Source: Halomonas sp. H10-9-1 (lineage in GTDB: Bacteria > Pseudomonadota > Gammaproteobacteria > Pseudomonadales > Halomonadaceae). From it: a stretch of 64,000 nucleotides of DNA. Positions within the stretch are counted from its first letter, which is position 1, and each line of letters opens with the position of its first letter. The notes under the pieces were generated by a model. That model saw nothing but the letters and a program-made list of their open reading frames with translations, did not search any database and had not been told where the DNA came from. The position numbers were made by a program, and so were the translations under genes. Positions 41,473 to 62,258 of the stretch are shown here, piece by piece. The stretch is from positions 3,224,001-3,288,000 of the forward strand of contig NZ_JAMSHO010000001.1 in the NCBI RefSeq assembly GCF_040147005.1, written 5' to 3'.

Positions 41473-41495
41473 GGGTATCCGGATTAAGTGGTTGA
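41473..41495 (+). repeat. Left terminal inverted repeat of the transposon
   Basis: 23 bp beginning GGGTATCCGGA and ending TGGTTGA; 20/23 identical to the right end. Confidence 0.93.
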
Positions 41496-41520
41496 CGATC
41501 CCTTCTGATCCACCAAAACC

Positions 41521-42822
41521 TTAATCTTCCCAGAAGGTTGATAGATCGACGCCGAAGTTCTTCTCGGGCTCGGGGAGACCCCTGCCGTAGGTCATGGTAG
41601 CCTTGCCTAGGAACGGGGACTCCTTGGTCTGCGGCGCCTTCTTCTTGTGCTTGGTGGTATAGAGCATCCGGGCCCGCATCACCTCGAATGAGTAGCCCCG
41701 GCCATCGCGGTTCTTGTCCTTGGCCAGCCGGTTGATCGACTCCGTGAAGGCGTTGGTGACCGGGATGTCAGTCTCGAAGTAGGTCAGCATCTCCTCACGC
41801 CATTCGCTGACGGCGCTGACAAGATCCTTCCAGACTTCCTTCTGCCCCTGCGGGATGTCGTCAATCCAGGCAGCTAGTGCCTTCTCAGCATCTCGCCGGG
41901 TGGCACAGTCCCAGATGTGGTAGAACCGCTCCTTATGCTCGTAGGCTGCCAGGAGCTGAGGGAAGGCCCCCGTCCAAGTCTCCATGATGAGCCGTTCGCG
42001 GTCTGAGACATCGTGAGCCCGCTTCAGCAGGATCTTCCGATCACCCTTGAGCGTCCGTCGCTGGTTGGCCGTCAGCTCCTTTCTGAGCCCCTTGCGGACC
42101 TTCTCCAAGGCTTCGTTGGCCATACGCACAACATGGAACTTATCGACCACGATGCGGGCCTGTGGCAGCACCGCCTGGACGGCACGGCGGTAGGGCTTCC
42201 ACATGTCCATGCTGACGATCTCGACCTTGTTGCGGTCGGTCATGTTCATGAGGCGTCTGGTCACGGAGTCCTGCTGACGACCGGGCAACAGGTCCAGCAG
42301 GGTACGCTCCTCAAGGTTGGTCAGGATGCAACGGTAGCGGCGGTTCAGGTACAGCTCGTCGATGCCCAGGCAACGGGGTGTCTCGAAACGGTGCCAGGTC
42401 GCCAGGAACTCAGCCTTCTTCTTGAAGATCTCTCGAATAGTCTTCTCGTCCAGGCCCGTGGTATCGGCCACATAAGCGTAGGGATGGTTGAAGGCTTCCT
42501 TCTCGACATGGCTGTAAAGCCTCCGCGTCATGCGATGAGTGTCAACCATCTCGGGGAGTGGTGGGCGGAATGTCTTTCCGCAGGCTCGGCAAGTGTAGCG
42601 GCGTCGTACCACCCATAGGGTGACTCGCTTGCCGTGGATGGGCAGATCTCGGTAAGCCACATCGCGCTTGCCAAACCTGACGAACTCTCCCTCTACGCCG
42701 CACTCCTTGCAGGCCACAGGGACCGGAGCTTCGACCTGAAAGTGGAGATCATGCTCTTCCATCTTTGTACCCAGGATGCGGTATTCCGGTAAATGGAGGA
42801 TGTTGTCAGGCAGAATGGTCAT
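41521..42822 (-). CDS. tnpA: ISL3-family transposase
   Basis: 433 residues. N-terminal zinc finger (CKECGVEGEFVRFGKRDVAYRDLP...YTCRACGKTFRP), HTH (TGLDEKTIREIFKKK), and DDE core: LGIDELYLNRR (first Asp), VSMDMWKPYRRAVQAVLP (ISL3 signature), DKFHVVRMANEALEKVR (second Asp) and NAFTESINRLAKDKNRDGRGYSF with the Glu. Intact. Its stop is 25 bp from the left inverted repeat. It is the only transposase in the element and must act on both distant ends. Confidence 0.95.
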   Translation of the reverse strand: MTILPDNILHLPEYRILGTKMEEHDLHFQVEAPVPVACKECGVEGEFVRFGKRDVAYRDLPIHGKRVTLWVVRRRYTCRACGKTFRPPLPEMVDTHRMTRRLYSHVEKEAFNHPYAYVADTTGLDEKTIREIFKKKAEFLATWHRFETPRCLGIDELYLNRRYRCILTNLEERTLLDLLPGRQQDSVTRRLMNMTDRNKVEIVSMDMWKPYRRAVQAVLPQARIVVDKFHVVRMANEALEKVRKGLRKELTANQRRTLKGDRKILLKRAHDVSDRERLIMETWTGAFPQLLAAYEHKERFYHIWDCATRRDAEKALAAWIDDIPQGQKEVWKDLVSAVSEWREEMLTYFETDIPVTNAFTESINRLAKDKNRDGRGYSFEVMRARMLYTTKHKKKAPQTKESPFLGKATMTYGRGLPEPEKNFGVDLSTFWED

Positions 42823-42851
42823 GCAAACGTTCCTTGTGCCTCTTTGTCATG

Positions 42852-43306
42852 TCACGACGGCGATCTCGTGTGATGGCCATCGATCATAAAGATGTGCCGA
42901 TGCCTGCCCCTTGGGTGATGGTGGGGATGGCGATGCGGTTCCGGCCCCTCCCAGCCCTCATGCTCATGCTGATGGTGGTCGTCATGATAGTGCAGATGGG
43001 TGTGCTCCATAGGAGCATGATCATGCTCGAGCGCCATAGGGTTCCCTGACGGCCAGACACGGATCGCGAGCGCCGTCGACACCAGCGCAATCGCCCCCAG
43101 CAGGGCGAAGGTCTCGATCAGGCCCACCTCGGCCCCGACTCAGCCGGCCAACGGATAGGCCACCAGCCATGCGAAAGCGAGAACTGCGCGGCGAACAGCG
43201 CCGGACGGTCCTCTGGCTGGCACGACTGTTTGAGCAGGCGTCCGGTGAGGGACATGACCAGCGAGGCGCCGGCGGCCCAGGTTAACCCCAGGGTCGACAG
43301 ACCCAA
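42852..43306 (-). pseudogene. MFS transporter 3' relic with His-rich tail
   Basis: Pieces of the C-terminal end of a major-facilitator protein: STLGLTWAAGASLVMSLTGRL and RPALFAAQFSLSH in one frame, FAWLVAYPLAG in another, a TGA where tryptophan is expected, then VGLIETFALLGAIALVSTALAI and a very His-rich tail (HDHAPMEHTHLHYHDDHHQHEHEG). So there is 5' truncation, one frameshift and one nonsense codon. The His-rich end suggests a former metal transporter. Confidence 0.65.
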
Positions 43307-43463
43307 TTTCCAAGAGTGAAATGTGATCGAACGTGGTTTTCGGCTGCCTCAAGGCGCTACGACGAACCCTGCGCCGTACTCCTAGGCAAGCCTCCTCGAC
43401 AGCCTTTCTCCCCCTGAACCGTACTGGTTCTCGACGGAAGATAGGGCACTGGACGGTGACAAC

Positions 43464-44042
43464 TCAGGCACCGCTGGCAAGCCTTTCGAGGTCGGCAACC
43501 ACGGCATCCATGGGGTCGCTGTCCCGGATCAGCAGGCGTACTTCTCCCTGGGCATTGAAGGCGAAGACAGCGCTGGAGTGCGACACATCATAGCTGCCTT
43601 CGCTGTCTTCTTCACCATACCCGTAGGTCACCCGATAGCGGCGTGTCAGCTTATCGAGTGCCGCTTTATCCCCAGTGAGGCCGATGAACTGGGGGCCGAA
43701 GGCGGCGGTGTAGCTATCCAGCGTCTCGGCGTTATCGCGGCGGGGGTCCACCGAGACGAAAAGCACCTGGATGTCATCGCGAGCCGCTTCATCCATGCGC
43801 TGGGTGGCAGCGTCGAGGCGCGCCAGGGTAGTGGGGCAGACATCGGGGCAATGGGTGAAGCCGAAGAACAGCAGCGTCGTCTTGCCGAGGAACTGATCGG
43901 CGCTCACCGTATTCCCGTTCTCGTCGATGAGTTCGAACGCCAGGGATGGCATCAGCCCCGAGATATCCTTGGTCTGCCAGTCTGGATCGCTGCAGCCCGC
44001 AATCCATAGCGTCACGAATAGTGCCATGATACATCGGCGCAT
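43464..44042 (-). CDS. SCO1/SenC-family copper chaperone lipoprotein
   Basis: 192 residues from MRRCIMALF. Lipobox-like LWIAGC at residue 18, so it is probably a lipoprotein. Thioredoxin fold with the copper-binding FFGFTHCPDVCPTTLARLD (CxxxC) near 66-78 and a conserved His in SYDVSHSSAVFAF. SCO proteins deliver copper to, or reduce, the CuA site of cytochrome c oxidase. It is in a run with PCuAC and CtaG, all oxidase-assembly factors. Confidence 0.92.
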   Translation of the reverse strand: MRRCIMALFVTLWIAGCSDPDWQTKDISGLMPSLAFELIDENGNTVSADQFLGKTTLLFFGFTHCPDVCPTTLARLDAATQRMDEAARDDIQVLFVSVDPRRDNAETLDSYTAAFGPQFIGLTGDKAALDKLTRRYRVTYGYGEEDSEGSYDVSHSSAVFAFNAQGEVRLLIRDSDPMDAVVADLERLASGA

Positions 44043-44052
44043 CCTGCTCCCC

Positions 44053-44517
44053 CTACTGTGCTGTCGGCGCCACGGCGCGGAACGTGACACGCTGTCGCTG
44101 ATTGCCGGCGAAATGAAGATTCACCTCGACGTCGTCACCTACGACGAGGGGGCGAGCCCGCTTCATGAGCATGAGATGATAGCCACCCGGAGCAAATTCG
44201 ACCTGTTCCCCCGCCGCCAGCTCCAGCTGGGCAACGGGCTCCATGCGGGTGACGCCATCCTGATTGACACTGCGGTGCATCATGACATTACCGAAAGCGG
44301 GGCTATCTGCTCCTGTCAGGGTGACGCCCTTCTCGCTGGTATTGGTGAGGGTGAAGTAGCCTGCCGCGGGCAGGTCCCCGGGCAGGAGCCGCAGACGCGC
44401 CTCGCTGACCTCCAGTTCGGCAGCCGCCATCGTGCCGGTCGTCGCGATCAGCAGCAGGAAGGTCGAGCACCAGCGTTTCGCCAGGCGCGGCAGACTAGGG
44501 TGTGGCGTGAGAGACAT
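44053..44517 (-). CDS. Periplasmic copper chaperone PCu(A)C
   Basis: About 154 residues if started at MSLTPHPSL; upstream ATGs at 44553, 44550, 44535 and 44526 are possible. Signal peptide ending TMAAA. The PCuAC copper site is seen as NVMMHRSV...RMEPV...GGYHLMLM, the H(M)x10Mx21HxM pattern. It hands Cu(I) to cytochrome oxidase or SCO in the periplasm. Overlaps the end of ctaG. Confidence 0.9.
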   Translation of the reverse strand: MSLTPHPSLPRLAKRWCSTFLLLIATTGTMAAAELEVSEARLRLLPGDLPAAGYFTLTNTSEKGVTLTGADSPAFGNVMMHRSVNQDGVTRMEPVAQLELAAGEQVEFAPGGYHLMLMKRARPLVVGDDVEVNLHFAGNQRQRVTFRAVAPTAQ

Positions 44518-45277
44518 CAGCGGCATCAGCGGCATCCTCCTTGCGGGCATCACGGAACAGAAAGCTGAGAATGATCAGAACCCCGATGGCACTCATCATC
44601 GTGGCCGGTACCCAAGTCAACAGGCCACCTAGGAGCTGGTCAGTCAGAGGGTCAAGCGGCCAGGCACGTCCGCACACCTCATAGACATCGAAGATGACAC
44701 TCCGGCTGAAGACGATATAGGCCCCCAGAACGATCTGCGGCGGAATCACCACCAGCAGGATGGCGATGCGCTTGCCGTAGCCGAGACCGCCCTGCTGCGG
44801 CGTGCGGCGATCCAAGATCAACCACCAGAACAGCAACCCATCCAGCGCCATGCTCCAGTTCATCACTTGATACAGGTCGGTACTCAGCATCGCATCGAAG
44901 TGGACCTCGGGAACCAACCAGAAGTAGATCAGCCCGACGAACAGTACGGGAGCGATCAGGGGATGCTGCAGCGTCCGGTATGCGGGACGCAGCAGGCGCG
45001 CGACCGGACTCCACCCTGAAAAGTGCCTGATTCGGGTCGGCAAGCCGTCTGCCAGTACCGGCAGGGGGGCGGCCAGGGCAATCAGGAAGGGACCGGCATG
45101 ATGCAGTATCAGGTGCTGTGCCCGATGGGTAAAGAACATGTACTGGGCGAGGTAGTCGTAATGGGTCTGAGTGACGCCATAGATGGTGGCGACACCCAGC
45201 AGGTAGGCAAGGACTCGACCTGCGCCGGTGGCCTCGCCTCGCCGTCGGCGCTGCCGGAGGCCACGCAGGTAGAGCAT
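44495..45277 (-). CDS. Cytochrome c oxidase assembly protein, CtaG (caa3) type
   Basis: 260 residues from the first ATG (MLYLRGLRQRR), but coding similarity continues upstream to about 45400 (EAALGYLLPWEFSLAWSGGCLLAI, a first membrane helix typical of the family). In that extension a TAG is followed by no ATG, GTG or TTG before the Met at 45277, so the true start is unclear. Core motifs: THRAQHLILHHAGPFLIALAAP, FWLVPEVHFDAML, MNWSMALDGLLFWW. Seven helices expected. Confidence 0.85.
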   Translation of the reverse strand: MLYLRGLRQRRRRGEATGAGRVLAYLLGVATIYGVTQTHYDYLAQYMFFTHRAQHLILHHAGPFLIALAAPLPVLADGLPTRIRHFSGWSPVARLLRPAYRTLQHPLIAPVLFVGLIYFWLVPEVHFDAMLSTDLYQVMNWSMALDGLLFWWLILDRRTPQQGGLGYGKRIAILLVVIPPQIVLGAYIVFSRSVIFDVYEVCGRAWPLDPLTDQLLGGLLTWVPATMMSAIGVLIILSFLFRDARKEDAADAADVSHATP

Positions 45278-45633
45278 GATGGCCAGCAGGCAGCCCCCCG
45301 ACCAGGCCAGCGAGAACTCCCACGGCAGCAGGTAGCCCAGAGCGGCTTCGAGGTCGATAGCCCTTCCCTCCCCAGAATCGGCATGCCAACGGTGAGACTA
45401 GGAGCCCACCGCGCCATGCGGCAAGGTGGGGCTATAAACGCAGACGAAGCCAGAGCCCGCACCTCGGTGCCTGGGAGGCGAGGAAGGCCGCACCCCAACG
45501 CACGGCACTTGTTCAGTGGTTGGGTACACCGCCAACGCACCGCCAGTGGCCATGCAGAGGGCGATAGACCCTGGATAAGCCACGACCGAATGTCAGCGTC
45601 ACGAGACTGACAAGACTCGCCATGTCGTCGTCG
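45278..45633. other. ctaG upstream extension and non-coding gap
   Basis: 45278-45400 reads as the N-terminal helix of CtaG but without a standard start codon. From 45400 to 45633 I see no gene I can support. Confidence 0.5.
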
Positions 45634-46707
45634 TCATGGCCTATGCAGCGCGAGTTCTGCGTAGATACCCTGGTAGCCAGTGTCGTGCTTTCTATCCGGC
45701 TCCGGCTCCGGCTCCGGCTTGGGGTTCAGGGATACCATGCGACCGCTGGGGTCATCCAACAGGCCGCGAAGCTGTTCATAATCGAAGGATATGCCCTCGG
45801 CCTTGCGTTGGTTGAGGCGTGTGACGGTGTCTACCAACTCGGACATGCTATGCCCTTCTGCCTCCAGAGGCGGGAATGCCTGAACCAGCGGCTGCCCTTC
45901 ATCCCAGCCGATCTTGATGGGCTGGTTGACGATTTGGACCCGGGTGCCGGCGGGCACGCGATCGAAAATCGACTCGATGTCCCCAGGGAACATGCGAATA
46001 CAGCCACGGCTGGCACGCATGCCGATACCATCCGGCTGGTTGGTGCCATGAATCAAGTAGCCGTCGAAACCCAGAATAATGGCATGGTCTCCCAGCGGAT
46101 TGTCCGGGCCCGGAGGCACCACGCTGGGCGCCTCCTCTCCACGCGCCCTGGCTTCACGCTGGACCGACTCGGGTGGGTACCAGGCAGGGTTCTTGATATT
46201 CATGGTGGTTTCGGTCACGCCGAGGGGCGTATCGAACCCCTCGCGACCGATGCCGATGGGATAGGTCTCGACACGTGGCGTTTCACCATCGTCAACCTTC
46301 GGATAGTAGTAGAGGCGCAGCTCGGCGATGTTGATGACGATCCCGGTGCGCTCCACATCGGGCAGGATGAAGCGCCCGGGTATGGTCACCTCGGTACCCT
46401 CGCCGGGAATCCAGATGCTCACATCCGGATTGGCGCGCACGATCTCCCTGTACCCCAGGTTGTGTCGCCTGGCGATGTCGATCAGGGTATCTTCTCGATC
46501 CTCCACCGTTACGCGGTAGGTGTCGCCAATCACATTGCCTTCCTCAGGCAGCGGATAGTGGCCGCGGGGCCATTCGCCCTCCTCTTCGGCCTGAGCAACG
46601 CCGATGAGTGCCAGCCAAACGACCAGCACCCCCACCAGTGTGCGTGTTCGGAGCTCCCACAATGGAGCTTTCCTCGCTGTACCAGAGTGAGGTTCCGATA
46701 AAGCCAT
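45634..46707 (-). CDS. L,D-transpeptidase (YkuD) with LysM domain
   Basis: 357 residues from the second of two adjacent ATGs, chosen for spacing to GGGAG. Signal peptide (VGVLVVWLALIGVAQA); LysM-like DTYRVTVEDREDTLIDIARRHNLGYREIVRANP; YkuD domain with YLIHGTN and catalytic Cys in SRGCIRM near residue 250. The tail has a PEPEPEP repeat from tandem GGCTCC units. The enzyme forms 3-3 peptidoglycan cross-links or attaches proteins to peptidoglycan. Lies just after lnt. Confidence 0.92.
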   Translation of the reverse strand: MALSEPHSGTARKAPLWELRTRTLVGVLVVWLALIGVAQAEEEGEWPRGHYPLPEEGNVIGDTYRVTVEDREDTLIDIARRHNLGYREIVRANPDVSIWIPGEGTEVTIPGRFILPDVERTGIVINIAELRLYYYPKVDDGETPRVETYPIGIGREGFDTPLGVTETTMNIKNPAWYPPESVQREARARGEEAPSVVPPGPDNPLGDHAIILGFDGYLIHGTNQPDGIGMRASRGCIRMFPGDIESIFDRVPAGTRVQIVNQPIKIGWDEGQPLVQAFPPLEAEGHSMSELVDTVTRLNQRKAEGISFDYEQLRGLLDDPSGRMVSLNPKPEPEPEPDRKHDTGYQGIYAELALHRP

Positions 46708-46736
46708 CATTCTCTCCCTTTTCGACTGGACCATTA

Positions 46737-48239
46737 TCATCCAGACCGACGTGTGTTGAGTTGCCATCCAAGCAGCACCAGTAATGCGGCCAACAGCCAG
46801 GTCGGCCAGCTACCGGTACGGGTGAACGGCGTGTACCCCGCCATGGGCAGCGCCTCGCCACGAAGGCTCGTAGTCTGGAACTGCGGTGCGAGGGCCGTGA
46901 CGCGGCCCTGAGGATCGACGATGGCGGTCACGCCATTGCTGGTGGCGCGGATAAGATAGCGGCCGTTCTCCAGGGCGCGCAGGCGGGCCATCTGCAGGTG
47001 CTGTTGGGGGCCGATGGAACGGCCGAACCAGGTGTCGTTGGAGACCGTCAGCAGCAGCTCGGCACCGCGCGCCTGCTCGGCGACCCGGTCGGCATAGATG
47101 ATCTCGTAGCAGATGGCGTTGCCGATGGTGGTGCCGGCGGCGTGGATCGGCCCCTGACCCTCGGGCCCGGGCGTCATGGTCGGCATGGGCAGGTCGAAGA
47201 AGGCAATAGTGCCGGCGAGCAGACGTTCAAGCGGCAGGTATTCGCCGAAGGGCACCAGGCGCGCCTTGCGATACTCGCCCTCGGCGGCGCCCAGGCCGAT
47301 CACGCTGTTGTAGTAGTCGCCGCCGTCGCGCTGCAGGATCCCGGTGAGCAGGGCGGTGTCGGGCGCGAGGTTGGAATGCACCCGCTCCAGGATCGGCCGC
47401 GCCTCGCGCTCGAACATCGGCAGGGCCGCCTCGGGCCAGACAACCAGGTCGAGGTCGTTGGACTGTGCAAGGGTCAATACCGTGTAGATGTTGGCCGCCT
47501 CACTCTGGCCATCGGGCGTCCACTTGATCGCCTGGTCCAGGTTGCCCTGCAGCAGGGCCACTCGCAGCGGCTCGCCGGACGGAGAGGTCCACTGGGTGGG
47601 CAACGCCAGCGGGGCCAGCCAAATGGCAGCAACCAGTGCGGCGGCCCACCAGCGATGGCGCAGCAACTCGATGCTCAGGGTACCGGTCAGTGCGGTGATC
47701 AGCGACAGCAGATAGACCCCGCCGATTGGTGCCCAGGCCGCCAGCGGCGACTCCACCTGAGAAGTCCCCAGCAGCAGCCAGGGAAAACCGGTGAATAGCC
47801 AGGTACGTAGCCACTCGCTCAGTACCCAGACCCCGGCGAAGCTGAAGAAGGCCAGACGCGGGCCCGTGACGCGCCGATAAACCCAGAAGGGGGCGGCGAA
47901 GAACAGCGCCAGGCTGGCTACGAACAGACCGGTGAGGAAGAGCGCCAGGGGCGTCCCCGTATAGCCATAGTCGTGGATCGCAACGAACACCCATGAGACC
48001 CCAGAGCCAAACAGCCCTACGCCATAACACCAACCGCGGAGGGCGGCCTGGGCGGGTGTCAGGGCATGGATGCCGAAATAGACCAGGGCCACCGCCACCG
48101 GGCCCAGCCACCACAGCGCGAAGGGCGCGGCGCTGAGGGTGGTCAACACGCCGGCGGTGACAGCGAGCCAGTAACCGAGGGCCGGGGAGATCCGGTCCAG
48201 AAGCGTCAGATAGCGCATCGACTGGCTGTCTGCGTCCAT
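46737..48239 (-). CDS. lnt: Apolipoprotein N-acyltransferase
   Basis: 500 residues from MDADSQSMRYL. N-terminal membrane bundle followed by a nitrilase-like periplasmic domain with the catalytic triad: Glu in VVWPEAALPM, Lys in YRKARLVPFGEYLPL, Cys in GNAICYEIIYAD. Adds the third acyl chain to lipoproteins. Starts four bases after the lspA stop, so both are in one operon cadA-lspA-lnt-ldt. A chromosomal copy must exist elsewhere, so this is an accessory one. Confidence 0.95.
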   Translation of the reverse strand: MDADSQSMRYLTLLDRISPALGYWLAVTAGVLTTLSAAPFALWWLGPVAVALVYFGIHALTPAQAALRGWCYGVGLFGSGVSWVFVAIHDYGYTGTPLALFLTGLFVASLALFFAAPFWVYRRVTGPRLAFFSFAGVWVLSEWLRTWLFTGFPWLLLGTSQVESPLAAWAPIGGVYLLSLITALTGTLSIELLRHRWWAAALVAAIWLAPLALPTQWTSPSGEPLRVALLQGNLDQAIKWTPDGQSEAANIYTVLTLAQSNDLDLVVWPEAALPMFEREARPILERVHSNLAPDTALLTGILQRDGGDYYNSVIGLGAAEGEYRKARLVPFGEYLPLERLLAGTIAFFDLPMPTMTPGPEGQGPIHAAGTTIGNAICYEIIYADRVAEQARGAELLLTVSNDTWFGRSIGPQQHLQMARLRALENGRYLIRATSNGVTAIVDPQGRVTALAPQFQTTSLRGEALPMAGYTPFTRTGSWPTWLLAALLVLLGWQLNTRRSG

Positions 48240-48243
48240 GACG

Positions 48244-48747
48244 CTACTCTGATCCGCTGGGAGAGGGGCGTTCACGCAAGGCCGCAATCGCAAAGGCGAT
48301 GACACCCAGGAACAGGGCGATATCCGCCAGGTTGAAGGCGGGCCAGTGCCACTCACGCCAGTAGACGTCCAGGTAGTCTACGACATACCCTCGTGCCAGG
48401 CGGTCGATGCCATTGCCCAGCGCGCCACCCAGCATCAAGCTGTAACCCAGCGCTTCCAGGCGAGGTCTCGGCCTGCTCAGCAGGATCGTCAGTACGATGG
48501 TCACCAACCCCGTCAGGCCCAGGAACAGATAGCGCTGCCATCCGCCGGCCTCGGCGAGGAAGCTGAATGCCGCCCCCGTGTTCCACCAGTGGCCCCAGTT
48601 GAAGAAAGGGGCTAGCGGGATGGCCTGGCCATACGGCATCAGCGCCTGCACCAGCCCCTTGATGGCCTGGTCGGCCAAGGCGACCACGCTGGCCAGTGCC
48701 AACCAGTACCGGCCTTGCGGCGCTATCGCTATCCGCTCTGTCCTCAT
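48244..48747 (-). CDS. lspA: Lipoprotein signal peptidase (signal peptidase II)
   Basis: 167 residues from MRTERIAIAP. Four helices, catalytic aspartates in GNGIDRLARGYVVDYLDV and FNLADIALFLG, and FNWGHWWNTGAAFSFL. Cleaves prolipoproteins before the lipidated Cys. The ATG overlaps the cadA stop (ATGA). lspA is the passenger also known from ISPpu12. Confidence 0.95.
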   Translation of the reverse strand: MRTERIAIAPQGRYWLALASVVALADQAIKGLVQALMPYGQAIPLAPFFNWGHWWNTGAAFSFLAEAGGWQRYLFLGLTGLVTIVLTILLSRPRPRLEALGYSLMLGGALGNGIDRLARGYVVDYLDVYWREWHWPAFNLADIALFLGVIAFAIAALRERPSPSGSE

Positions 48748-50939: not shown

Positions 50940-50972
50940 GGTGTGACTCCGTGGGATGATGTAGTATGCGAA

Positions 50973-51003: not shown

Positions 51004-51052
51004 GCCCCATCGGTTACAGCCCGAAGGGCGGTTCTCTGGGAGGGAGGGCACG

Positions 51053-52289: not shown

Positions 52290-52310
52290 GCGCCTGGAAG
52301 GGTCGGCAAG

Positions 52311-53093
52311 CTAGCCCAGCGAGACATCCAGGAACAGCATGAGTACCAACCCCACCGAGAGCCCCAACGTCGCCTTGTTCTGGTGGCCACTTCGGTGGGT
52401 CTCGGGAATGATCTCATGGCTGATGACATAGAGCATGGCGCCGGCGGCGAAGGCCAGCCCCCAGGGGAGCAGCACTTGTGACATGCTGACGACTCCCGCA
52501 CCTAGCAGGCCACCCAGCGGCTCTACCAGCCCGGTGAGGGAGGCAATGGTCCAGGATCGCCAGCGTGAATAGCCTTCACCCAGCAGTGCCACTGCCACCG
52601 CCAGGCCTTCCGGCGCATTCTGCAGGCCGATACCGATGGCAAGGGGAAGTCCCCCTTCGCTTCCCCCTGCTCCAAAAGCCACACCAACCGCCAGACCCTC
52701 TGGCAGGTTGTGGATCGTGATGGCAATGATGAACAGCCAGATTCGGCGAAGCGATGCTGCCTGTGGCCCTTCACGCCCCTGCTCGAAATGCTCGTGGGGG
52801 AGTCGCTCATTCAGCAGGGCGACCAGCCCCATCCCCATCAGTATCGACGCGCAGGCAATGACGGCAGGCAAGACGCTACCGCCATAGCGCAGTCCAGAGG
52901 CTTCCAGGGAGGGAATGATCAGTGAAAAGAAGGACGCCGCCAGCATGACACCGGCGGCGAATCCGAGTGCCAGGTCGCGAACGGCACGATCGGGCGCCTT
53001 GCTGATCAGGATAGGTAGCGCTCCGATCGCGGTCATCGAACCGGCGGCAAGACTACCCAAAAACCCCAGCGTGACTGGAGAGACACCTTCCAT
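52311..53093 (-). CDS. ZIP-family metal transporter (GufA-like)
   Basis: 260 residues from MEGVSPVTLG after GGGGAAGGG. Eight helices; metal-site motifs ITIHNLPEGLAVGVAFG in TM4 and GIGLQNAPEGLAVAVAL in TM5; C-terminal YVISHEIIPETHRSGH. ZIP proteins usually bring divalent metals into the cytosol; in a resistance element this may balance zinc or run differently. Confidence 0.9.
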   Translation of the reverse strand: MEGVSPVTLGFLGSLAAGSMTAIGALPILISKAPDRAVRDLALGFAAGVMLAASFFSLIIPSLEASGLRYGGSVLPAVIACASILMGMGLVALLNERLPHEHFEQGREGPQAASLRRIWLFIIAITIHNLPEGLAVGVAFGAGGSEGGLPLAIGIGLQNAPEGLAVAVALLGEGYSRWRSWTIASLTGLVEPLGGLLGAGVVSMSQVLLPWGLAFAAGAMLYVISHEIIPETHRSGHQNKATLGLSVGLVLMLFLDVSLG

Positions 53094-53200
53094 AGACCCT
53101 TCCCCTTTGGAGGGTTGGTACTGCAGGGAATGTTGAGTCACACGACGATAGCCATTACATGGCCACCGCTGCGTCTCATACAACAAGCCAGCCTGGCGGC

Positions 53201-54460: not shown

Positions 54461-55134
54461 GACGCATCGTCCTCGCCAGCGACCTCGGTCACCTCACGAT
54501 TGACGGCGTCGACCAGTTCCTGCATGCCGAAGGGGTCCAACAGCTCACCATTGACGAAAAAGGTCGGCGTCTGGCGGATCTGGTTGGCCTTGACGTCTTC
54601 CTTGTCCTGGTCAATGACCGCTTGTACCTCGGGGGAATCAAGTTGTTCCTCTGCTGCAGCCCTGTCCAGACCGGCCTCGCTGGCGATATCCAGAATAGCG
54701 GCCTCATCGAAGCTGCCATGAGCCGCCCACTGGCTCTGCCGGGCCAGCAACGCTTCCAGCACCGGCTGGAAGACGTCCTGGCGCCTGGCGACTTCCAGCA
54801 CGCGAATGGCGGTATCGGACACGTCTCCGTGGAAGGGCGTGTAGCGCACCACCAACCGCACCTGGTCGGGATACTCTTCCTGGATGCGCTTGGTCAGCGG
54901 ATAGAAGGCACGGCAGGCCTCACAGGCCGGGTCGAAGAACTCCACGATGGTCACCGGCGCTTCTTCCGGCCCCAGAATAGGCGAGTGTGAGCGCACCAGA
55001 GAGTTTTCGGCCTGAGCGCCATCCTGGCTGGCCGCCTCGGCGCCCATGCCCAACAACGAGGGTCTCGCTACGATCACGATGAGGGCGGTCAGCATCAACG
55101 CGCCAACCAGGATAAACGTCGCTTTTTTGTACAT
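54457..55134 (-). CDS. DsbA-family periplasmic thioredoxin-like protein
   Basis: 225 residues from MYKKATFIL; the ATG 12 bp upstream is rejected because it contains the GGAGAAG ribosome site. Membrane anchor, then DsbA fold with redox site FFDPACEACRAFYP near 69-82 and cis-Pro in RQTPTFFVNGEL. Acts as a disulfide oxidase or isomerase in the periplasm. Confidence 0.9.
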   Translation of the reverse strand: MYKKATFILVGALMLTALIVIVARPSLLGMGAEAASQDGAQAENSLVRSHSPILGPEEAPVTIVEFFDPACEACRAFYPLTKRIQEEYPDQVRLVVRYTPFHGDVSDTAIRVLEVARRQDVFQPVLEALLARQSQWAAHGSFDEAAILDIASEAGLDRAAAEEQLDSPEVQAVIDQDKEDVKANQIRQTPTFFVNGELLDPFGMQELVDAVNREVTEVAGEDDAS

Positions 55135-55235
55135 TGACTTCTCCAATTCAAGTGGTTAAGCGGAAAGCAAGACCAGAGAGCTGCTGAGTAGATCTCAACC
55201 GCTGTTGGGTGCCTAAGTCGGCGAATAGTGACGTG

Positions 55236-56150
55236 TCATCCATGCCCATAAAGATTGGCTCTCTGATGCGCATGATCAATATGCTCGAATTCCAAGCTGG
55301 AGTGGCCAATGTCAAAGCGCGCTTTTAGCTGAGCCTTGATATCCGCCTTGATCGCCTCAAGCTGCTGCCAGCCGGCTTCCGTGAGCACCACGTGACAGTC
55401 AAGCGCGGCAGTGCTTTCCTGCATTTGCCATAGGTGGACATGATGTACATCCTGGACACCCTCGACGTCACGCAGCGCATCAATGACTGATTGGCCGTCG
55501 ATATCGGGTGGCGATCCCAACATCAGTGTCCGGATAGGGCCACCAATCTCCGTAAAGGCGAGATAAAGAATATAGAGCGCAATGCCGATCGTAATCGCGG
55601 GGTCTACCCAGCGCATGTCGTATAGCAGAATCAGCGAGCCCCCAATGATCACGGCGAGGGACGCAAGCGCATCAGATAGGTTGTGCAGAAACAGGGCCCG
55701 AATATTGACGCTATGCTTTTGCATCGACCAGGTAAGCAAGGCCGTGAGCGCGTCGACTGCTAAGGCGACGGCACCGATGACAACGATGATCCAGCCCTGA
55801 ACCGCTGGCGGGTCGATCATGCGCATGGCGCCTTCGTAAATCAGGTAGACGCCGACGAGAATGAGCGTGGTGTAGTTGATCAGCGCCGCCACAATCTCGA
55901 TTCGTCCATAGCCAAACGTCATCTGTGAGTCTGGCGGTCGTCTTGCTATCTTGCGGGCCGCAAAGGCAATGACGAGCGCCGCCATGTCGGAAAAATTATG
56001 CAGCGCATCCGCGATCAGCGAGAGGCTTCCCGCCAGGATACCCCCAACAATCTGAGCAACGGTCAATATCCCGTTGGCCCAGATGGCGATGCTCACCCGA
56101 CGGTCACCAGAGGTGGGGTCAAGATGGGGATGATCGTGATGATGTTCCAT
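55236..56150 (-). CDS. CDF-family cation efflux transporter (CzcD/ZitB-like)
   Basis: 304 residues from MEHHHDHPHLDP, a His-rich N-terminus. Six helices with metal-site motifs IADALHNFSDM and FLHNLSDALASL, and a C-terminal ferredoxin-like domain (GVQDVHHVHLWQMQESTAALDCHV). Exports Zn/Cd/Co with proton exchange. It has its own MerR-type promoter at 56185-56215. Confidence 0.93.
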   Translation of the reverse strand: MEHHHDHPHLDPTSGDRRVSIAIWANGILTVAQIVGGILAGSLSLIADALHNFSDMAALVIAFAARKIARRPPDSQMTFGYGRIEIVAALINYTTLILVGVYLIYEGAMRMIDPPAVQGWIIVVIGAVALAVDALTALLTWSMQKHSVNIRALFLHNLSDALASLAVIIGGSLILLYDMRWVDPAITIGIALYILYLAFTEIGGPIRTLMLGSPPDIDGQSVIDALRDVEGVQDVHHVHLWQMQESTAALDCHVVLTEAGWQQLEAIKADIKAQLKARFDIGHSSLEFEHIDHAHQRANLYGHG

Positions 56151-56184
56151 GCGTCGTCCTTGTGGTGTCACCTGATGACGCGAC

Positions 56185-56215: not shown

Positions 56216-56324
56216 GCCCGAATTATAATGAATACCGAGCCAAGGCTAGGCGTGGTGGAACTTTGCATAGTGGGCGCTGTAACAGACATGGTTACCATCT
56301 CCCATGCCCCGGAAGGAGCCCATT

Positions 56325-57743
56325 GTGATACCCAAGCCTCACTCGCACACCTGGCTGATGAGCCTAGCTTTACTCTTGATGCTGGCGACGCCAGTCCTCG
56401 CCGAGCCACGGCTGCCAGACTTCACGGCGCTGGTCGACAAGGCCGCGCCGGCCGTCGTCAACATCTCCACCTCACGGGAGGTTGAGAGGTCCATGACGTC
56501 CTCTCGGCAGTTTGGGGGGCAGGAGGTGCCGGAGATCTTTCGAGAGTTCTTCGGCGACCGCATCCCGATGCCACCCGGCGGGGCGCCCAATCGCAATGAG
56601 GAGCCACGTCAGTCACTGGGATCGGGCTTCATCTTCGATGAAGACGGCTACATCATGACCAACGCCCATGTGGTCAAGGATGCCGACGAGATCCTGGTGC
56701 GCCTCAACGACCGCCGTGAACTCGAGGCCGAGCTGGTTGGTGCCGACGAGAAGACCGACGTGGCGGTGCTCAAGGTCGAGGCGGACAACCTGCCCACCCT
56801 GGAGCTGGGCGAGTCCTCCGACCTCAAGGTCGGACAGTGGGTCGCCGCCATCGGCTCGCCCTTCGGCTTCGACCATTCCGTGACCGCGGGCATCATCAGC
56901 GCCATCAACCGTACCCTGCCCCAGGATGTTTATGTGCCCTTCATCCAGACCGACGTGGCCATAAACCCGGGTAACTCAGGCGGTCCGCTGTTCAACCTGG
57001 ACGGTGAGGTCGTGGGTATCAACTCCCAGATCCTGACCCGTAGCGGCGGTTATATGGGCCTTTCGTTTGCCATCCCGATCGATGTGGCCATGGATGTGGC
57101 CGACCAACTGCGTGATGACGGCTTCGTGAACCGTGGCTGGCTAGGTGTCAGGATCCAGCCGGTCTCCAAGGACCTGGCGGAATCCTTCGGCATGGAACAG
57201 GCGGAAGGAGCCTTGATCGCAGATCTGGACCCTCGCGGACCGGCAGCCAAGGGTGGTCTCCAAGCAGGAGACGTTATCCTGAAGGTGAATGGCGAGGAGG
57301 TGGATCATTCCACCACGCTTCCCCGACTTGTGGGCGAAGTGACGCCCGGTGAGGAAGTCGAACTCTCGGTGCTGCGCGATGGTGAAAAGCAGCCCATCAC
57401 CCTGACAGTCGGGGAGTGGCCGGATGTGGTTGCTAACCAGGGTGATAGCGACGGCGGTCCGGTGCGACTGGGTATTACAGTGCAGTCTCTGAGCGAGCTT
57501 GAGCGTCGCCAGCTGGGTATCAAGCAGGGCGTGCGTATCGTCAGCGTCGATCCCGCCGGCAGCGCGGCAGCGGCCGGGATCCGGCCAGGGGATGTGCTGA
57601 TGAGCATCGGCCAGCAGTCGGTGGAGAGTGCGGAGCAACTGGCCGATATGGCCGCCAACTTACCCCAAGAGCAAGTCGTCCCAGTGCTCATCAACCGCGA
57701 GGGCCGTTCCTACTTCGTTGCCTTACGCCCGGTGAGTAACTGA
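56325..57743 (+). CDS. HtrA/DegP-family periplasmic serine protease (MucD-like)
   Basis: 472 residues from a GTG six bases after GGAAGGAG; an ATG at 56304 is in frame but lacks a ribosome site. Signal peptide ending PVLA. Trypsin-like domain with the catalytic His in TNAHVVKDADE, Asp in KTDVAVLKVE and Ser in PGNSGGPLFNLDG, followed by two PDZ domains (GWLGVRIQPVSKDLAESFG; RLGITVQSLSELERRQLG). Degrades or refolds damaged envelope proteins. Confidence 0.94.
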   Translation: MIPKPHSHTWLMSLALLLMLATPVLAEPRLPDFTALVDKAAPAVVNISTSREVERSMTSSRQFGGQEVPEIFREFFGDRIPMPPGGAPNRNEEPRQSLGSGFIFDEDGYIMTNAHVVKDADEILVRLNDRRELEAELVGADEKTDVAVLKVEADNLPTLELGESSDLKVGQWVAAIGSPFGFDHSVTAGIISAINRTLPQDVYVPFIQTDVAINPGNSGGPLFNLDGEVVGINSQILTRSGGYMGLSFAIPIDVAMDVADQLRDDGFVNRGWLGVRIQPVSKDLAESFGMEQAEGALIADLDPRGPAAKGGLQAGDVILKVNGEEVDHSTTLPRLVGEVTPGEEVELSVLRDGEKQPITLTVGEWPDVVANQGDSDGGPVRLGITVQSLSELERRQLGIKQGVRIVSVDPAGSAAAAGIRPGDVLMSIGQQSVESAEQLADMAANLPQEQVVPVLINREGRSYFVALRPVSN

Positions 57744-57879
57744 CCTGTCCGGGACGTCGGCATTCGACTCCCTCAATGGCAAGGGCGTGGTGGGTCAGGG
57801 GGCAGACGGCCCGCTCCGCTCAGCAACCGCTTGTTGATGGAACGCGAGCATGTGGAGGGGCAGCCGAACAAAGCGAGGC

Positions 57880-58137
57880 CGTGCGCCTGCGCGGCGACGG
57901 CGCCATGGTAATCTTCGCTGCCGTGGGCGGTCGTTCGGTGGAGCTGCTGGCCATGCCGACCCCATCAAGGAGAAGAATACCACCGGTGGCGTGATCCGGG
58001 CGCGGCAGGATGCCGATGTACGGGTGGTGATGTTACCCCGCCTACGCCGAGAACGTCTCGCCGGCGTTCCTGTTCAACGGCATTGGTATTCCGCTGGCCA
58101 CAACCGGCTTGAGCTACCCGCAGGGGGCAAGCTCTGA
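57880..58137 (+). pseudogene. Ghost of a heavy-metal P-type ATPase
   Basis: Short frame-shifted pieces: GAMVIFAAVGGRSVELLAM, then DPIKEKN...DADVRVVML (matching the DPIK-E...VRVVMLTGD region of P1B ATPases), then after a deletion AFLFNGIGIPLATTGLSYP, matching the last helices. The rest of 57744-58186 holds no gene I can support. Confidence 0.5.
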
Positions 58138-58318: not shown

Positions 58319-58621
58319 ATGAGCAAGACATCCTCCAGCCCCTCCGGCAAGGCCGTCGCGACGGGCGGCGTGCTGCTCACGGCCTGCGCGGTCTGCTGCG
58401 CCCCGCTGGTCGTCCCTTTCCTGGCCGCGTTCTTCGCCGCCGGTGGAGTCGGCCTAGCGCTGGCGGGACAGATCGGGCTCGGCATCGCCGCGCTTGGCGC
58501 GGTCGGCGGTTATCTCTACCTGCGCCGTCGCGTCGCATCGAAAAGGGCCGGAAGCTGCGGTTGCGGCCCAATCGGCGGTTGTGCCGATGCGGGCCAAGCG
58601 CAGCGCGACCCGAGGGCATGA
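58319..58621 (+). CDS. Small membrane protein, MerF/MerT-like cysteine layout
   Basis: 100 residues, two helices. ACAVCCAPLVVP in the first helix and GSCGCGPIGGCAD after the second resemble the vicinal cysteines of MerF/MerT mercury uptake proteins. Similarity is in layout rather than clear homology. Five bases before the ArsR gene. Confidence 0.65.
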   Translation: MSKTSSSPSGKAVATGGVLLTACAVCCAPLVVPFLAAFFAAGGVGLALAGQIGLGIAALGAVGGYLYLRRRVASKRAGSCGCGPIGGCADAGQAQRDPRA

Positions 58622-58625
58622 GTCC

Positions 58626-58979
58626 ATGGCACACGGTTGCGGACGCCAGAACAGCGACGACATCGTCGCCAGAAAACTGACCGCCCTCGCCCATCCCGTT
58701 CGCCTGGCGGCGATTCGCCAGTTGGCGGCGGCGGGCCCCACCGGCCTGGCGGCAGGCAGGCTCGCCGAGCGCCTCGACGTGGCGCCGAATGCGCTGACCT
58801 TCCACTTGCAGAAGCTGGCCGCCGCCGGCCTGGTCGAATCGCACCGCGAGGGCCAGTTCGTCTATTACCGCGCGGTGTTCGATGCCCTGCTGGCGTTGAC
58901 GGACCACCTGGTCGGTGCCTGCTGCAGCGAGGCCGAGGAAAGCTGCGGGCCCCGCTGCCCCACGTCTCGCGACCGGTGA
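58626..58979 (+). CDS. ArsR/SmtB-family repressor
   Basis: 117 residues from MAHGCGRQN. Winged HTH: RLAERLDVAPNALTFHLQKLAAAGLVESHREGQFVYYR. Cysteines at the C-terminus (GACCSEAEESCGPRC) could sense arsenic, mercury or another soft metal. Controls the operator at 58187 by inference. Confidence 0.88.
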   Translation: MAHGCGRQNSDDIVARKLTALAHPVRLAAIRQLAAAGPTGLAAGRLAERLDVAPNALTFHLQKLAAAGLVESHREGQFVYYRAVFDALLALTDHLVGACCSEAEESCGPRCPTSRDR

Positions 58980-59033
58980 CCCTCCGCCTCGCCTGAGGGT
59001 CCATCCACACCGTTCATCAAAAGGGAGCGCAAG

Positions 59034-59483
59034 ATGATCCAGACAGTCCCCACCAAACCCTCCTGGCCAAGGGCGATCGGCATCGGGATCGCGGTGTCGG
59101 TGCTCACCGCCATCGTGATGGTCGCCTTGTTGAAGGCTGGCGTATCCCCCTTCCCGAAGCCCCCTTCTCTGGCCTTCGCCGAGACCTTGCTGGGACGGCC
59201 CCTGCCGATGCCGATCGGCCTGCTCTTCCATACGGTCTACGTGACCTTCTGATCGGTGGTGTTCGTGCGCTATTTCCCGCGCAAGACCCTGCCGACCGCG
59301 CTGGGCCTGGCCGCCGTGCTGTGGGTCGTGATCCTGGTGGTGTTCTTCCCCGTGGTGGGCTGGGGACTCGCCGGCCTGGCTATCGGTCCCCAACTGATTC
59401 CGGCGTCCGCCCTGCCGCACCTGCTGTTCGGCCTGCTGCTGTGGGGGCTGGACCGTTATCTGGGCAGGCACGGCGGGTCATGA
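59034..59483 (+). pseudogene. Four-helix membrane protein with internal TGA
   Basis: A 150-codon frame (MIQTVPTKPSWPRAIG...) continues after a single TGA at 59250-59252: LFHTVYVTF-stop-SVVFVRYFPRKTL...LLLWGLDRYLGRHGGS. A tryptophan (TGG) is the natural reading of that codon. Either a recent nonsense mutation or readthrough. The family is unknown to me. Its end overlaps the ATG option of the thioredoxin gene. Confidence 0.7.
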
Positions 59484-59545
59484 CACATCCTGAACGAACG
59501 TCGGCGGTCGCTACCGCCCAAGTGATAGCAAGAGGAAAAAGACTC

Positions 59546-59956
59546 GTGATTCGCAAACCACTCTCGGCCCTGACGGGATATGTCGTGTTGCTGTTTTCCC
59601 TGATATTGGCACCGGCGGCGATGGCGTTGGACGCCGAGCCGTTCAGCATGGAGCGGTTCGAGACGTTGCAGGAGCAGGGGGAAAGTGTGCTGGTGCACAT
59701 CAGCGCGCCATGGTGTCCGAACTGCCAGAGGCAAAAGCAGGTTCTCACCGAATACCAGCAGCAGTACCCGGACGCCGGGCTGCATATCCTGAACGTGGAC
59801 TACGATACCCAGAAGCAATGGGTGACCCATTTCAAGGCCCCACATCAGTCGACGCTGGTGCTGTTCTCGGGCACCGAGCAGGTCTGGTTCGCCGTCGGGG
59901 AAACTCGCAAGGAGAAGATTTTCAGCCAACTCAATGCCGTGACCGATGGCTCTTGA
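59546..59956 (+). CDS. Periplasmic thioredoxin-family protein
   Basis: 136 residues from GTG at 59546, giving a clean signal peptide (IRKPLSALTGYVVLLFSLILAPAAMA); an ATG at 59480 would add 22 residues. Redox site APWCPNCQRQK near 55. Ends 11 bases inside the next ccdA-like gene, so the two are coupled as a periplasmic reductant pair. Confidence 0.88.
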   Translation: MIRKPLSALTGYVVLLFSLILAPAAMALDAEPFSMERFETLQEQGESVLVHISAPWCPNCQRQKQVLTEYQQQYPDAGLHILNVDYDTQKQWVTHFKAPHQSTLVLFSGTEQVWFAVGETRKEKIFSQLNAVTDGS

Positions 59957-60653
59957 ACTGACGGCGCTCCCCCTCGCCTTCCTGGCGGGGGTGGTGGGCA
60001 TCCTCTCGCCCTGCGTCTGGCCCCTGGTACCGGTGGTCATCGCCTCGTCCACCACCACCGGTCGCTTCGGCCCCCTGGCCCTGGCCGGTGGGTTGAGCCT
60101 GTCCTTCGCCGTGGCCGGCAGTGTGCTGATGTTTTTCCTGGTCAACCTGGGGCTGGACCCGGAATCGTTCCGTTACCTCGCCGCCGTCATCCTGCTGGCC
60201 GCCGGGGCCATGCTGGTGATCAAGCCCCTGGCCAACCGCCTGACATCGGGGCTGTCGTTTGTAACGTCCCGGTGGAATCTCGACGCCAGCGCCGAGCGCT
60301 GGTATGGCCAATTCGGCGTGGGCCTGCTGCTGGGCCTCGTCTGGCTTCCCTGTGTGGGCCCCACCCTGGGCGCAGCGATCGGGCTGGCGTCCATGGGCCA
60401 GCAGATGGGCCTCGCCTTTCTGGTGATGCTGATGTTCGGCGCGGGCACGGCGGCGGTCCTGCTGGCGGCCGGCCTGTTGTCGAGCCGGGCGATCGCCCGC
60501 TGGAATGCCACGGCCATGAAGAGCGCGGACCTCGGTAAACGCCTGCTGGGCTGGACACTACTGCTGTTGGGAGGACTCGTGCTCACCGGCGTCGACAAGG
60601 TCCTGCAGACCTGGGCGGTGCAGATGCTTCCCGCTTGGGTGACGGGCCTGTAG
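59946..60653 (+). CDS. CcdA/DsbD-beta-like membrane thiol electron carrier
   Basis: 235 residues, six helices. Cysteine motifs GILSPCVWPLVPVV near 20 and VWLPCVGPTLGAAIG near 137. It moves reducing power to the neighbouring thioredoxin. Only distantly like the two other CcdA copies in the window. Confidence 0.88.
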   Translation: MALELTALPLAFLAGVVGILSPCVWPLVPVVIASSTTTGRFGPLALAGGLSLSFAVAGSVLMFFLVNLGLDPESFRYLAAVILLAAGAMLVIKPLANRLTSGLSFVTSRWNLDASAERWYGQFGVGLLLGLVWLPCVGPTLGAAIGLASMGQQMGLAFLVMLMFGAGTAAVLLAAGLLSSRAIARWNATAMKSADLGKRLLGWTLLLLGGLVLTGVDKVLQTWAVQMLPAWVTGL

Positions 60654-60766
60654 GGGATTCCTGCGGGACAGTCCTTGCGCCGGCGTTCAACCGGGAAACC
60701 AGGAAGAGAGGCCGGAAAGCCTCGGCGAGGATGGAAGAGGAACATCACGCCAAGCCAGGAGGTACC

Positions 60767-61090
60767 ATGACAACGATCGATACCGCCACCCTACGTGACT
60801 GGCAGCGGCGACACCGGGAGTTCACCCTGGTGGATACCCTGCCGGCCGAGACCTTCACCAAGGGACACCTGCCGGGGGCCATCAACATCGTCTCCGACGA
60901 CATCCTGGACGAGGCGCCCCGCCGGCTACCCGACAGGCAAGCGACCATCGTCGTGTATTGTACCAGTGAAGACTGCAAACGGGCCGGCCGTGCCGCCGAA
61001 CGACTGGCCCGCCTCGGCTACACCGCGGTCTACCACTATGTGGGTGGAAAGAAGGCCTGGTTGGCCGAAGGCTTGACACTGGAACACTGA
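60767..61090 (+). CDS. Rhodanese-like sulfurtransferase domain protein
   Basis: 107 residues, single rhodanese domain, cytosolic. Active-site loop VVYCTSEDCKRAG with Cys near 66; typical GHLPGAINIV and GGKKAWLAEGLTLE ends. May transfer sulfane sulfur or bind arsenate/cyanide-linked thiols. ATG after GGAGG. Confidence 0.9.
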   Translation: MTTIDTATLRDWQRRHREFTLVDTLPAETFTKGHLPGAINIVSDDILDEAPRRLPDRQATIVVYCTSEDCKRAGRAAERLARLGYTAVYHYVGGKKAWLAEGLTLEH

Positions 61091-61105
61091 GAAGGATCCT
61101 CTCCC

Positions 61106-62071
61106 GTGCGCGACTGGCTGGAACGCCAGCAATCCTGGATCTATCTAATTGGTATCCTGGCAGGCCTGGCCATCGGGCTGGGCCTGCCGGACGTGACCTC
61201 ACGCCTTGAAGCCGTTCTCTGGCCGCTGCTCGGCGGGCTGCTCTATGCCACCTTTACCCAGGTGCCGCTGACGCGAATCGGCCAGGGCCTCAAGGATTGG
61301 CGCTTCCTGGCGGCCCTGCTGCTCGGCAACTTCGTGGTGATCCCCCTAGTCCTAGGCGGGCTGATGACCCTCCTGCCCGTATCAGTCGCCGTGCAAGCCG
61401 GCGTGCTGCTGGTGCTGCTCGTCCCCTGTACCGACTGGTTCATCAGCTTCACCCACCTCGGCAAAGGCGATGCCGGCCGAGCCATTGCCGCCACACCGGT
61501 GCTCCTGCTCGCGCAGCTGCTGGCCCTGCCCGTCTATCTCTGGCTCTTCCTGGGCGCGGAGTGGCTTCAGACCGCCATCAGCACCCATCTGCTCGGCGCC
61601 TTTGCGGGGCTGATCCTCACGCCTCTGGCCCTGGCCTGGATGACCGAGCGCCTGGCCGAGCGCAGCCTCAATACCAGGCGGTGGGTGCATGGCCTGGGCA
61701 TGCTGCCCGTGCCGCTACTGGCACTGGTAGTCTTCGTCATCGCGGCATCGCAGGTGACGACCGTGGCCGGCCTCACCGGGGTGTTGCTGCAGGTGCTGTT
61801 GATCTTCGTCGCCTACTTGATCTTCGCCGCGTTCCTGGGCAAGACCCTCGGCAGACTGTTCCAGCTCCCCACGCGTTCGGCCAGAACCTTGACCTTCAGC
61901 TTCGGCACCCGCAACTCCTTTGTGGTGCTGCCCATCGCCTTGGCGCTGCCCGAGGCCTGGCAAGCCGCCGTGGTGGTCATCGTCTTCCAGTCGCTGGTCG
62001 AACTGTTCGGCATGGTGGCCTACCTGAGCTGGGTGCCGGGCAAGTTGATCCCAGACCCCTCTCCCTCCTAG
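61106..62071 (+). CDS. Acr3/BASS-family arsenic-resistance-type permease
   Basis: 321 residues from GTG (RDWLERQQSW), ten helices. VLLVPCTDWFISFTHLGKGD matches the conserved Cys-containing helix 4 of Acr3-type arsenite exporters; GTRNSFVVLPIALALP is the second BASS repeat signature. Probably exports arsenite or a related oxyanion, consistent with the ArsR gene in the same group. Confidence 0.85.
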   Translation: MRDWLERQQSWIYLIGILAGLAIGLGLPDVTSRLEAVLWPLLGGLLYATFTQVPLTRIGQGLKDWRFLAALLLGNFVVIPLVLGGLMTLLPVSVAVQAGVLLVLLVPCTDWFISFTHLGKGDAGRAIAATPVLLLAQLLALPVYLWLFLGAEWLQTAISTHLLGAFAGLILTPLALAWMTERLAERSLNTRRWVHGLGMLPVPLLALVVFVIAASQVTTVAGLTGVLLQVLLIFVAYLIFAAFLGKTLGRLFQLPTRSARTLTFSFGTRNSFVVLPIALALPEAWQAAVVVIVFQSLVELFGMVAYLSWVPGKLIPDPSPS

Positions 62072-62235
62072 CCGCACGGCTCCGTGACGCCACCTCTCGG
62101 CGGCGCCTGGCGATCTGCACCATGGCCCCGACCGGAGGGTAGTTCACCGGACGCAACCCTTGAGTAAACCAAGCACCCATCAACCGAGAAATCCGGTGAG
62201 GCAGAGAGTAGGGACCTTTTTGCGATAACCAGAAA

Positions 62236-62258
62236 TCAACCAGATATTCCGGATACCC
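62236..62258 (-). repeat. Right terminal inverted repeat of the transposon
   Basis: Reads GGGTATCCGGA...TGGTTGA on the minus strand; three mismatches to the left end. 62072-62235 between the last cargo gene and this repeat shows no gene. Confidence 0.93.

What the first reader, a model, noticed from the sequence alone, without database searches (positions are those of the whole stretch)
41473..62258. A 20.8-kb single-unit ISL3 transposon with exact 8-bp duplication
Inverted ends (GGGTATCCGGA..., 20/23), identical TCTATTTC on both sides and frame restoration of the interrupted gene show the whole 20,786 bp moved as one element with a single transposase. Passenger-bearing ISL3 elements such as ISPpu12 are known with only a few cargo genes; this one has the same lspA, CDF and MerR functions but about 22 genes or relics.
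Basis: partly seen in the sequence, partly recalled or inferred. Interest (0 to 1): 0.95.

Follow-up and report, generated by a model that had tools for sequence, protein, structure and literature searches.

The report
Large metal-gene transposon, ISL3 type
A 20.8-kb stretch of bacterial DNA carrying about 20 mostly metal-related genes appears to have jumped as one piece with a single transposase, and a closely similar copy sits at a different place in a related species.

Summary
Window 41473-62258 (20,786 bp) has 20/23 inverted ends, an exact 8-bp duplication and one ISL3 transposase. It splits the defence gene ietS; joining the flanks restores one open frame, and two relatives carry ietS uninterrupted. 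No internal end was found at up to 6 mismatches. The strongest new evidence is a second full-length copy (20,766 bp, 96.1% identical) in another Halomonas species (matched to H. alimentaria DSM 15356), at an unrelated site, with its own exact 8-bp duplication and a restored frame. So the whole unit was inserted at least twice. It belongs to a wider set: of 37 opposing end pairs taken from 275 family genomes, 29 have 7-8/8 duplications (0.6-25.2 kb; seven of at least 10 kb). The metal cluster is not tied to ISL3: in 12 further genomes examined at least eight of its genes keep their order without an enclosing end pair in the stretch. Cluster alleles have been exchanged between carriers by homologous recombination. 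ISL3 elements with passenger genes and ISPpu12 composites are already known, so this is an unusually large unit form of a known kind. Transposition itself was not tested.

The parts
41465..41472 (.). left copy of the 8-bp target duplication TCTATTTC
41473..41495 (+). left terminal inverted repeat
   Evidence: 20 of 23 against the right end
41521..42822 (-). ISL3 transposase, 433 aa
   Evidence: Pfam DDE_Tnp_ISL3 4e-66; NCBIfam NF033550 303.6 bits, cut-off 180
42852..43127 (-). histidine-rich 91-aa ORF beside the transposase, no Pfam family
   Evidence: 79-89% relatives beside transposase sequence in L059, G058, G167 and G038
43464..45277 (-). SCO1, PCu(A)C copper chaperone, CtaG (cytochrome oxidase assembly)
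45634..48882 (-). L,D-transpeptidase, lnt, lspA
48744..50939 (-). heavy-metal P-type ATPase (best full-length models Zn/Cd/Pb type, below their equivalog cut-offs)
50966..51775 (+). CcdA/DsbD-TM-like membrane protein
51732..52289 (+). MerR-family regulator
52311..53186 (-). ZIP transporter
53201..55146 (-). M23 peptidase and DsbA-like thioredoxin
55236..56171 (-). CDF cation efflux protein
56304..57743 (+). trypsin-like PDZ protease (DegP/DegQ type)
44173..52272 (.). tract exchanged by homologous recombination: 72-97% to G029 per 300 bp, with 100% just outside on both sides
57744..58128 (.). junction scar between the metal cluster and the arsenic-type module
   Evidence: 100% in G029; no full-length match in the other loci held
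58319..62071 (+). arsenic-type module: small ORF without a family, ArsR-type regulator, thioredoxin, DsbD-like, rhodanese, ACR3/SBF-like transporter
   Evidence: shared to the right end with the 11-kb G042 element at 93%
62236..62258 (-). right terminal inverted repeat
62259..62266 (.). right copy of the 8-bp target duplication
41109..41472 (+). 5' part of the interrupted ietS
62267..64000 (+). 3' part of ietS (subtilase domain), runs off the window end
39981..41108 (+). ietA (AAA ATPase), partner of ietS

Best explanation
A single-unit ISL3 transposon of the transporter-IS type. One DDE transposase recognises the two outer ends, moves everything between them and leaves an 8-bp duplication. 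Shown from sequence: ends, duplication, restored target frame, uninterrupted ietS in two relatives, and a second full-length copy at an unrelated site with its own duplication. Inferred: that this element's own transposase did the moving; that the unit grew when an ISL3 carrier with an arsenic-type module took up an older free-standing metal cluster; that carriers later exchanged cluster alleles by homologous recombination; and that the cargo benefits the host through metal efflux together with copper delivery to the oxidase and envelope upkeep.
For: Ends and duplication; no internal ends; restored ietS frame and uninterrupted relatives G056 and G236; second copy in G029, 20,766 bp, 96.1% end to end, flanks ATAATTTC twice, unrelated flanks, restored 196-codon frame; left 2.5 kb 100% and most of the right 9.8 kb 99.6-100% identical to G029 against 93% for a 1.9-kb core stretch; 29 of 37 related end pairs have 7-8/8 duplications against 19 of 1,332 cross-paired flanks.
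Against: No transposition, excision or expression was observed. One copy only in the own genome. 8 of 37 end pairs lack a duplication of 7/8 or better, and one search took the best-matching pairing within each stretch. The metal cluster occurs in many relatives outside ISL3 ends. The middle of the element has been overwritten by homologous recombination, so recombination also moves parts of it.
Confidence: 0.9

Rival explanations
1. The element is the decayed product of a composite: two ISL3 elements in the same orientation flanked the cargo, the outermost ends moved the whole, and one inner copy was then lost, leaving what now looks like a unit. This concerns origin and can be true together with present-day unit movement.
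For: THAF12, G153, G147 and G007 have an outer left end with a truncated or interrupted transposase, cargo, and an inner ISL3 mer element sharing the right end; only the outermost ends carry 8/8 duplications. G058 (25.2 kb) has a relic left end, the metal cluster, then an inner ISL3 unit with an interrupted transposase, and 8/8 outer duplications. DEH is a known case between two ISPpu12 copies (PMC12060670, part 1 of 2).
Against: The window element has no internal end at up to 6 mismatches and only one close transposase copy. Its arsenic-type module plus right end recur as one piece in the 11-kb G042 element.
Confidence: 0.4
2. The cargo island was resident and ISL3 ends landed on either side, so the pair of ends and the duplication are coincidental.
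For: The cluster lacks enclosing ends in the 12 other genomes examined.
Against: Exact duplication and restored reading frames at two unrelated sites with the whole 20.8 kb between; cross-paired flanks reach 7/8 in only 19 of 1,332 cases.
Confidence: 0.02
3. The element is now a passive passenger: it transposed in the past but is spread today mainly by homologous recombination and conjugation of larger DNA.
For: Clear exchange tracts in the cargo; a single copy in the own genome.
Against: The transposase protein is 100% identical and both terminal parts are near-identical between two species, and both insertions keep exact duplications, so the insertions look recent.
Confidence: 0.15

Closest known systems
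ISPpu12 / ISPpu12a (ISL3, Pseudomonas)
   Same: ISL3 transposase (about 77% identical in ISPpu12-sized relatives), the same type of ends and 8-bp duplications, and lspA, metal-antiporter and MerR-type passengers (PMC4133298 section 18; gene names also PMC12060670).
   Different: 3,372 bp with 21/24 repeats (PMC3056050 passages) against 20,786 bp and about 20 cargo ORFs here.
DEH and Tn6580a/b (ISPpu12 composite transposons)
   Same: Large DNA associated with ISL3 elements (PMC12060670 part 1 of 2; PMC8239412 passages).
   Different: They are described as flanked by ISPpu12 copies or as ISPpu12 composites; the window element has one transposase and one pair of ends.
5.1-kb ISL3 mercury elements (Halomonas THAF12, Paracoccus albus plasmids and others)
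   Same: Transposase region about 87% identical in DNA, same ends; 11 named copies with a full merA and 7-8/8 duplications.
   Different: One mer operon instead of the metal cluster and arsenic-type module.
Free-standing metal cluster of Halomonadaceae (for example G091, G084, plasmid pHAL1)
   Same: Same genes in the same order.
   Different: No enclosing pair of ISL3 ends in the stretches read.

Membership tests
ISL3 insertion-sequence family | ISL3-type DDE transposase | tested here: met
ISL3 insertion-sequence family | imperfect terminal inverted repeats and 8-bp target duplication (feature list recalled) | tested here: met
ISL3 insertion-sequence family | usual length 1.3-1.55 kb (PMC3960245 passage); typical, not defining | tested here: not met
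   20,786 bp
Transporter IS (tIS) | an IS derivative carrying passenger genes (PMC9330008 passages) | tested here: met
Composite transposon | two IS copies flanking the cargo | tested here: not met
   one close transposase copy in the genome, no internal ends at up to 6 mismatches
Active transposon | observed transposition or excision | not testable with these tools
   needs culture; two insertions are inferred from duplications

The most novel reading that the evidence does not exclude
ISPpu12-like ISL3 elements in halophilic and marine proteobacteria are a general cargo vehicle. The same ends carry mercury, arsenic, chromate, sulfate-permease and amino-acid-metabolism modules, and they build multi-operon transposons of up to at least 25 kb by using the outermost ends across neighbouring elements and by swapping cargo through homologous recombination, a role usually credited to Tn3- or Tn7-type transposons.
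Probability: 0.55. Interest if true: 0.62.

Novelty: new variant of a known kind. Interest (0 to 1): 0.55.

Why it matters
ISL3 elements are usually treated as small insertion sequences. Here one pair of ends and one transposase account for the placement of 20.8 kb at two sites in two species, and related end pairs carry varied cargo up to 25 kb. This gives a concrete route by which multi-operon metal clusters become mobile in environmental bacteria, and it means that annotation which stops at 'ISL3 transposase' misses the true ends of such elements.

Tried and rejected
Considered and rejected: a smaller mobile unit inside (no internal ends); chance duplication (19 of 1,332 cross-paired flanks reach 7/8, against 29 of 37 real pairs); a donor of the replaced tract still in the own genome (the cargo query gave one match in G000, the element itself); a near-identical donor elsewhere (best of the 13 alleles compared is 88.7%).

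Led nowhere: the junction scar 57744-58128 has no full-length relative in the loci held other than G029. The far end of the G167/G038 carriers was not found in the stretches fetched. The left flank of the G029 insertion has no match in the own genome, so no empty site for it could be shown there (that call had no positive control). Whole-genome scripting was not available. PMC2820860 and PMC135414 are not held, so the original TnpR and ISPpu12 papers were not read.

Against my reading: 8 of 37 end pairs lack a duplication of 7/8 or better, and for each stretch the best pairing was taken. 26 of 78 named loci gave no paired ends with a 7-8/8 duplication (23 without a duplication, 3 without a proximal end), partly because flanks ended at 10 kb: L088, the H. 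alimentaria copy itself, is among the 23. 36 of 275 genomes were not scored, and its match list was cut.

Full report
Observation. The pattern built from the ends occurs exactly twice in the own genome at up to 3 mismatches. Inside the element only the two termini match at up to 6 mismatches; 20 shuffles of the element gave 0.4 matches on average. In 275 family genomes the pattern at up to 1 mismatch hit 58, and the reversed-pattern control was 0 throughout the table. The transposase meets the ISL3 equivalog model. It is the only close copy in the genome; nine further matches are 25-26% identical.

Target. The element splits ietS next to ietA; a type III restriction system lies upstream. Joining the flanks minus one duplication copy gives 699 codons, open to the window end. 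Ten of 275 family genomes, the own one included, have a match to the IetS part at E <= 1e-20. In G056 and G236 the region across the insertion point aligns without a large insert, at 72.7% over 801 and 66.8% over 786 columns, and the frame is open (749 and 783 aa).

Second copy. G029 has both ends 20,766 bp apart with flanks ATAATTTC on both sides. The element aligns end to end at 96.1%. The 1.7-2.0 kb flanks share no similarity with the window's flanks, and 1 kb of the left flank has no match in the own genome. Removing the element and one duplication copy leaves an open frame of 196 codons, which I read by eye as a maltose-acetyltransferase-like protein (name recalled, not searched). A 1.9-kb core stretch is 93% identical between the two species, whereas the element is 100% identical over 41473-43972 and 99.6-100% in all but one of the 500-bp windows from 52473 on (the exception, 55973-56472, is 96.6%). 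Two independent insertions of the full unit are the simplest reading.

Mosaic cargo. Over 44173-52272 the window and G029 fall to 72.2-97.3% per 300 bp, while G029 and G058 are 98.3-100% there. In 45700-50900 G029 and G058 are 99.9% identical and the window is 88.6% and 88.5% from them; in 53300-55900 all three are 99.8-100%. G029 and G058 stay at 98.3-100% from 44173 to 56172 and diverge on both sides, although their ISL3 parts differ. So cluster alleles have been exchanged between carriers by homologous recombination. The donor of the window's tract is not among the 13 alleles compared (best 88.7%).

The cluster outside ISL3. A 14.6-kb cargo query matched 228 of 239 scored genomes, often through single homologous genes; 36 genomes were not scored. 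I fetched 13 stretches from 12 of the genomes with long matches. In all 12, at least eight cluster genes keep their order and no pair of ends encloses them in the stretch. Five (G091, G084, G231, G061, G023) show no end at up to 3 mismatches. Two (G167, G038) have an inward-facing end with a transposase that matches in two pieces. The others have ends nearby that do not enclose the cluster, among them a complete mer element beside it in G074. The cluster is therefore older than, or independent of, ISL3 carriage.

Wider set. From the list I read off 37 neighbouring opposing end pairs, the window's included, and fetched them. Taking the best pairing in each stretch, 29 have 7-8/8 duplications, 25 of them 8/8. 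Seven are at least 10 kb: 20.8, 20.8, 25.2, 11.0, 14.9, 12.6 and 12.6 kb, with six different duplications, since G147 and G153 share one. THAF12 adds a 15.4-kb case. Cross-paired flanks reach 7/8 in 19 of 1,332 cases. Of 78 named loci (from the best 80 of 418 matches), 52 have paired ends with 7-8/8 duplications; 11 of these hold a full merA at 98.9-100% identity and one more at 67%. Other cargo by Pfam: chromate transporter, PadR and FA hydroxylase beside the arsenic-type module (L048); asparaginase, serine-dehydratase-like, PALP and GntP genes with only a transposase remnant (L049); ArsC, SBF transporter, FMN reductase, GAPDH and MFS genes (L050; L054 has a similar ORF layout but was not scanned); sulfate permease (L060); YgjV-like and LysR (L061); LysE, DHDPS-like and B3/4 genes (L063); MFS (L059). 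In the nested forms (THAF12, G153, G147, G007) the outermost ends carry the duplication although an inner left end exists.

How it most likely works. Shown: insertion of the full unit at two sites, each with an 8-bp duplication. Inferred: the element's own transposase acts on the outer ends. The arsenic-type module with the right end is shared with the 11-kb G042 element, which has other cargo between, so I favour growth by capture inside a carrier. Decay of a composite is a live alternative. The cargo (zinc/cadmium-type ATPase, CDF, ZIP, MerR, copper chaperones, lipoprotein maturation, periplasmic redox and protease genes, an ACR3-like transporter) suggests metal efflux with envelope upkeep. 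That function is inferred; the CZC module of ISPpu12a gave no Cd, Co or Zn resistance in the hosts tested in print (PMC4447125, passages).

Known context. ISPpu12a is described as resembling a non-composite transposon in structure, with two ORFs not involved in transposition (PMC4133298, section 18); ISPpu12 is 3,372 bp with 21/24 repeats (PMC3056050, passages). Transporter ISs are an accepted class (PMC9330008, passages). ISPpu12 composites include DEH (PMC12060670, part 1 of 2 of the text) and Tn6580a/b (PMC8239412, passages). In the listings of nine literature searches and the passages read I saw no single-unit ISL3 element near 20 kb and no ISL3 mer unit. Each listing showed at most 20 papers, that library lacks most subscription journals, and ISfinder was not available, so this is weak evidence of absence.

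Verdict. It is an unusually large unit form of a known kind, with an informative set of relatives around it.

Noticed in passing
window 50968-51007 and 56180-56219: Two 40-nt direct repeats, 83% alike, upstream of the CcdA gene and between the CDF and protease genes; they look like MerR-type operators, so one MerR may control both (reading is by eye).
   Followed up: no
L002 1782-17143; L051, L052, L053: Nested ISL3 elements in which an outer left end with a broken transposase and an inner complete mer element share one right end; the outermost ends carry the 8/8 duplication, and the inner left junction reads ACTAGTTAAGGC in all four.
   Followed up: partly
L185 (G049) and L186 (G052): Short non-autonomous elements (931 and 582 bp) with the same type of ends and 8/8 duplications.
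   Followed up: no
window 33915-38618: Type III restriction-modification genes upstream of ietA; the methyltransferase seems to lie in two ORFs (33915-34862 and 34923-36146).
   Followed up: no
G167 C1:3408761 and G038 C71:259861: The same metal cluster beside an inward ISL3 end with flank AGAATTCT in both genomes; the far end was not found in the stretches read.
   Followed up: partly
window 59034-59483: Between the ArsR-type and thioredoxin genes: a possible interrupted membrane-protein frame, seen by eye; 99.8-100% identical in G029.
   Followed up: no
window 6176-6901, 9205-10290, 21555-23837: Further metal-type genes outside the element (CcdA-like, CDF-like, copper-type P-type ATPase) among several insertion-sequence genes; named by eye from the ORF list.
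   Followed up: no
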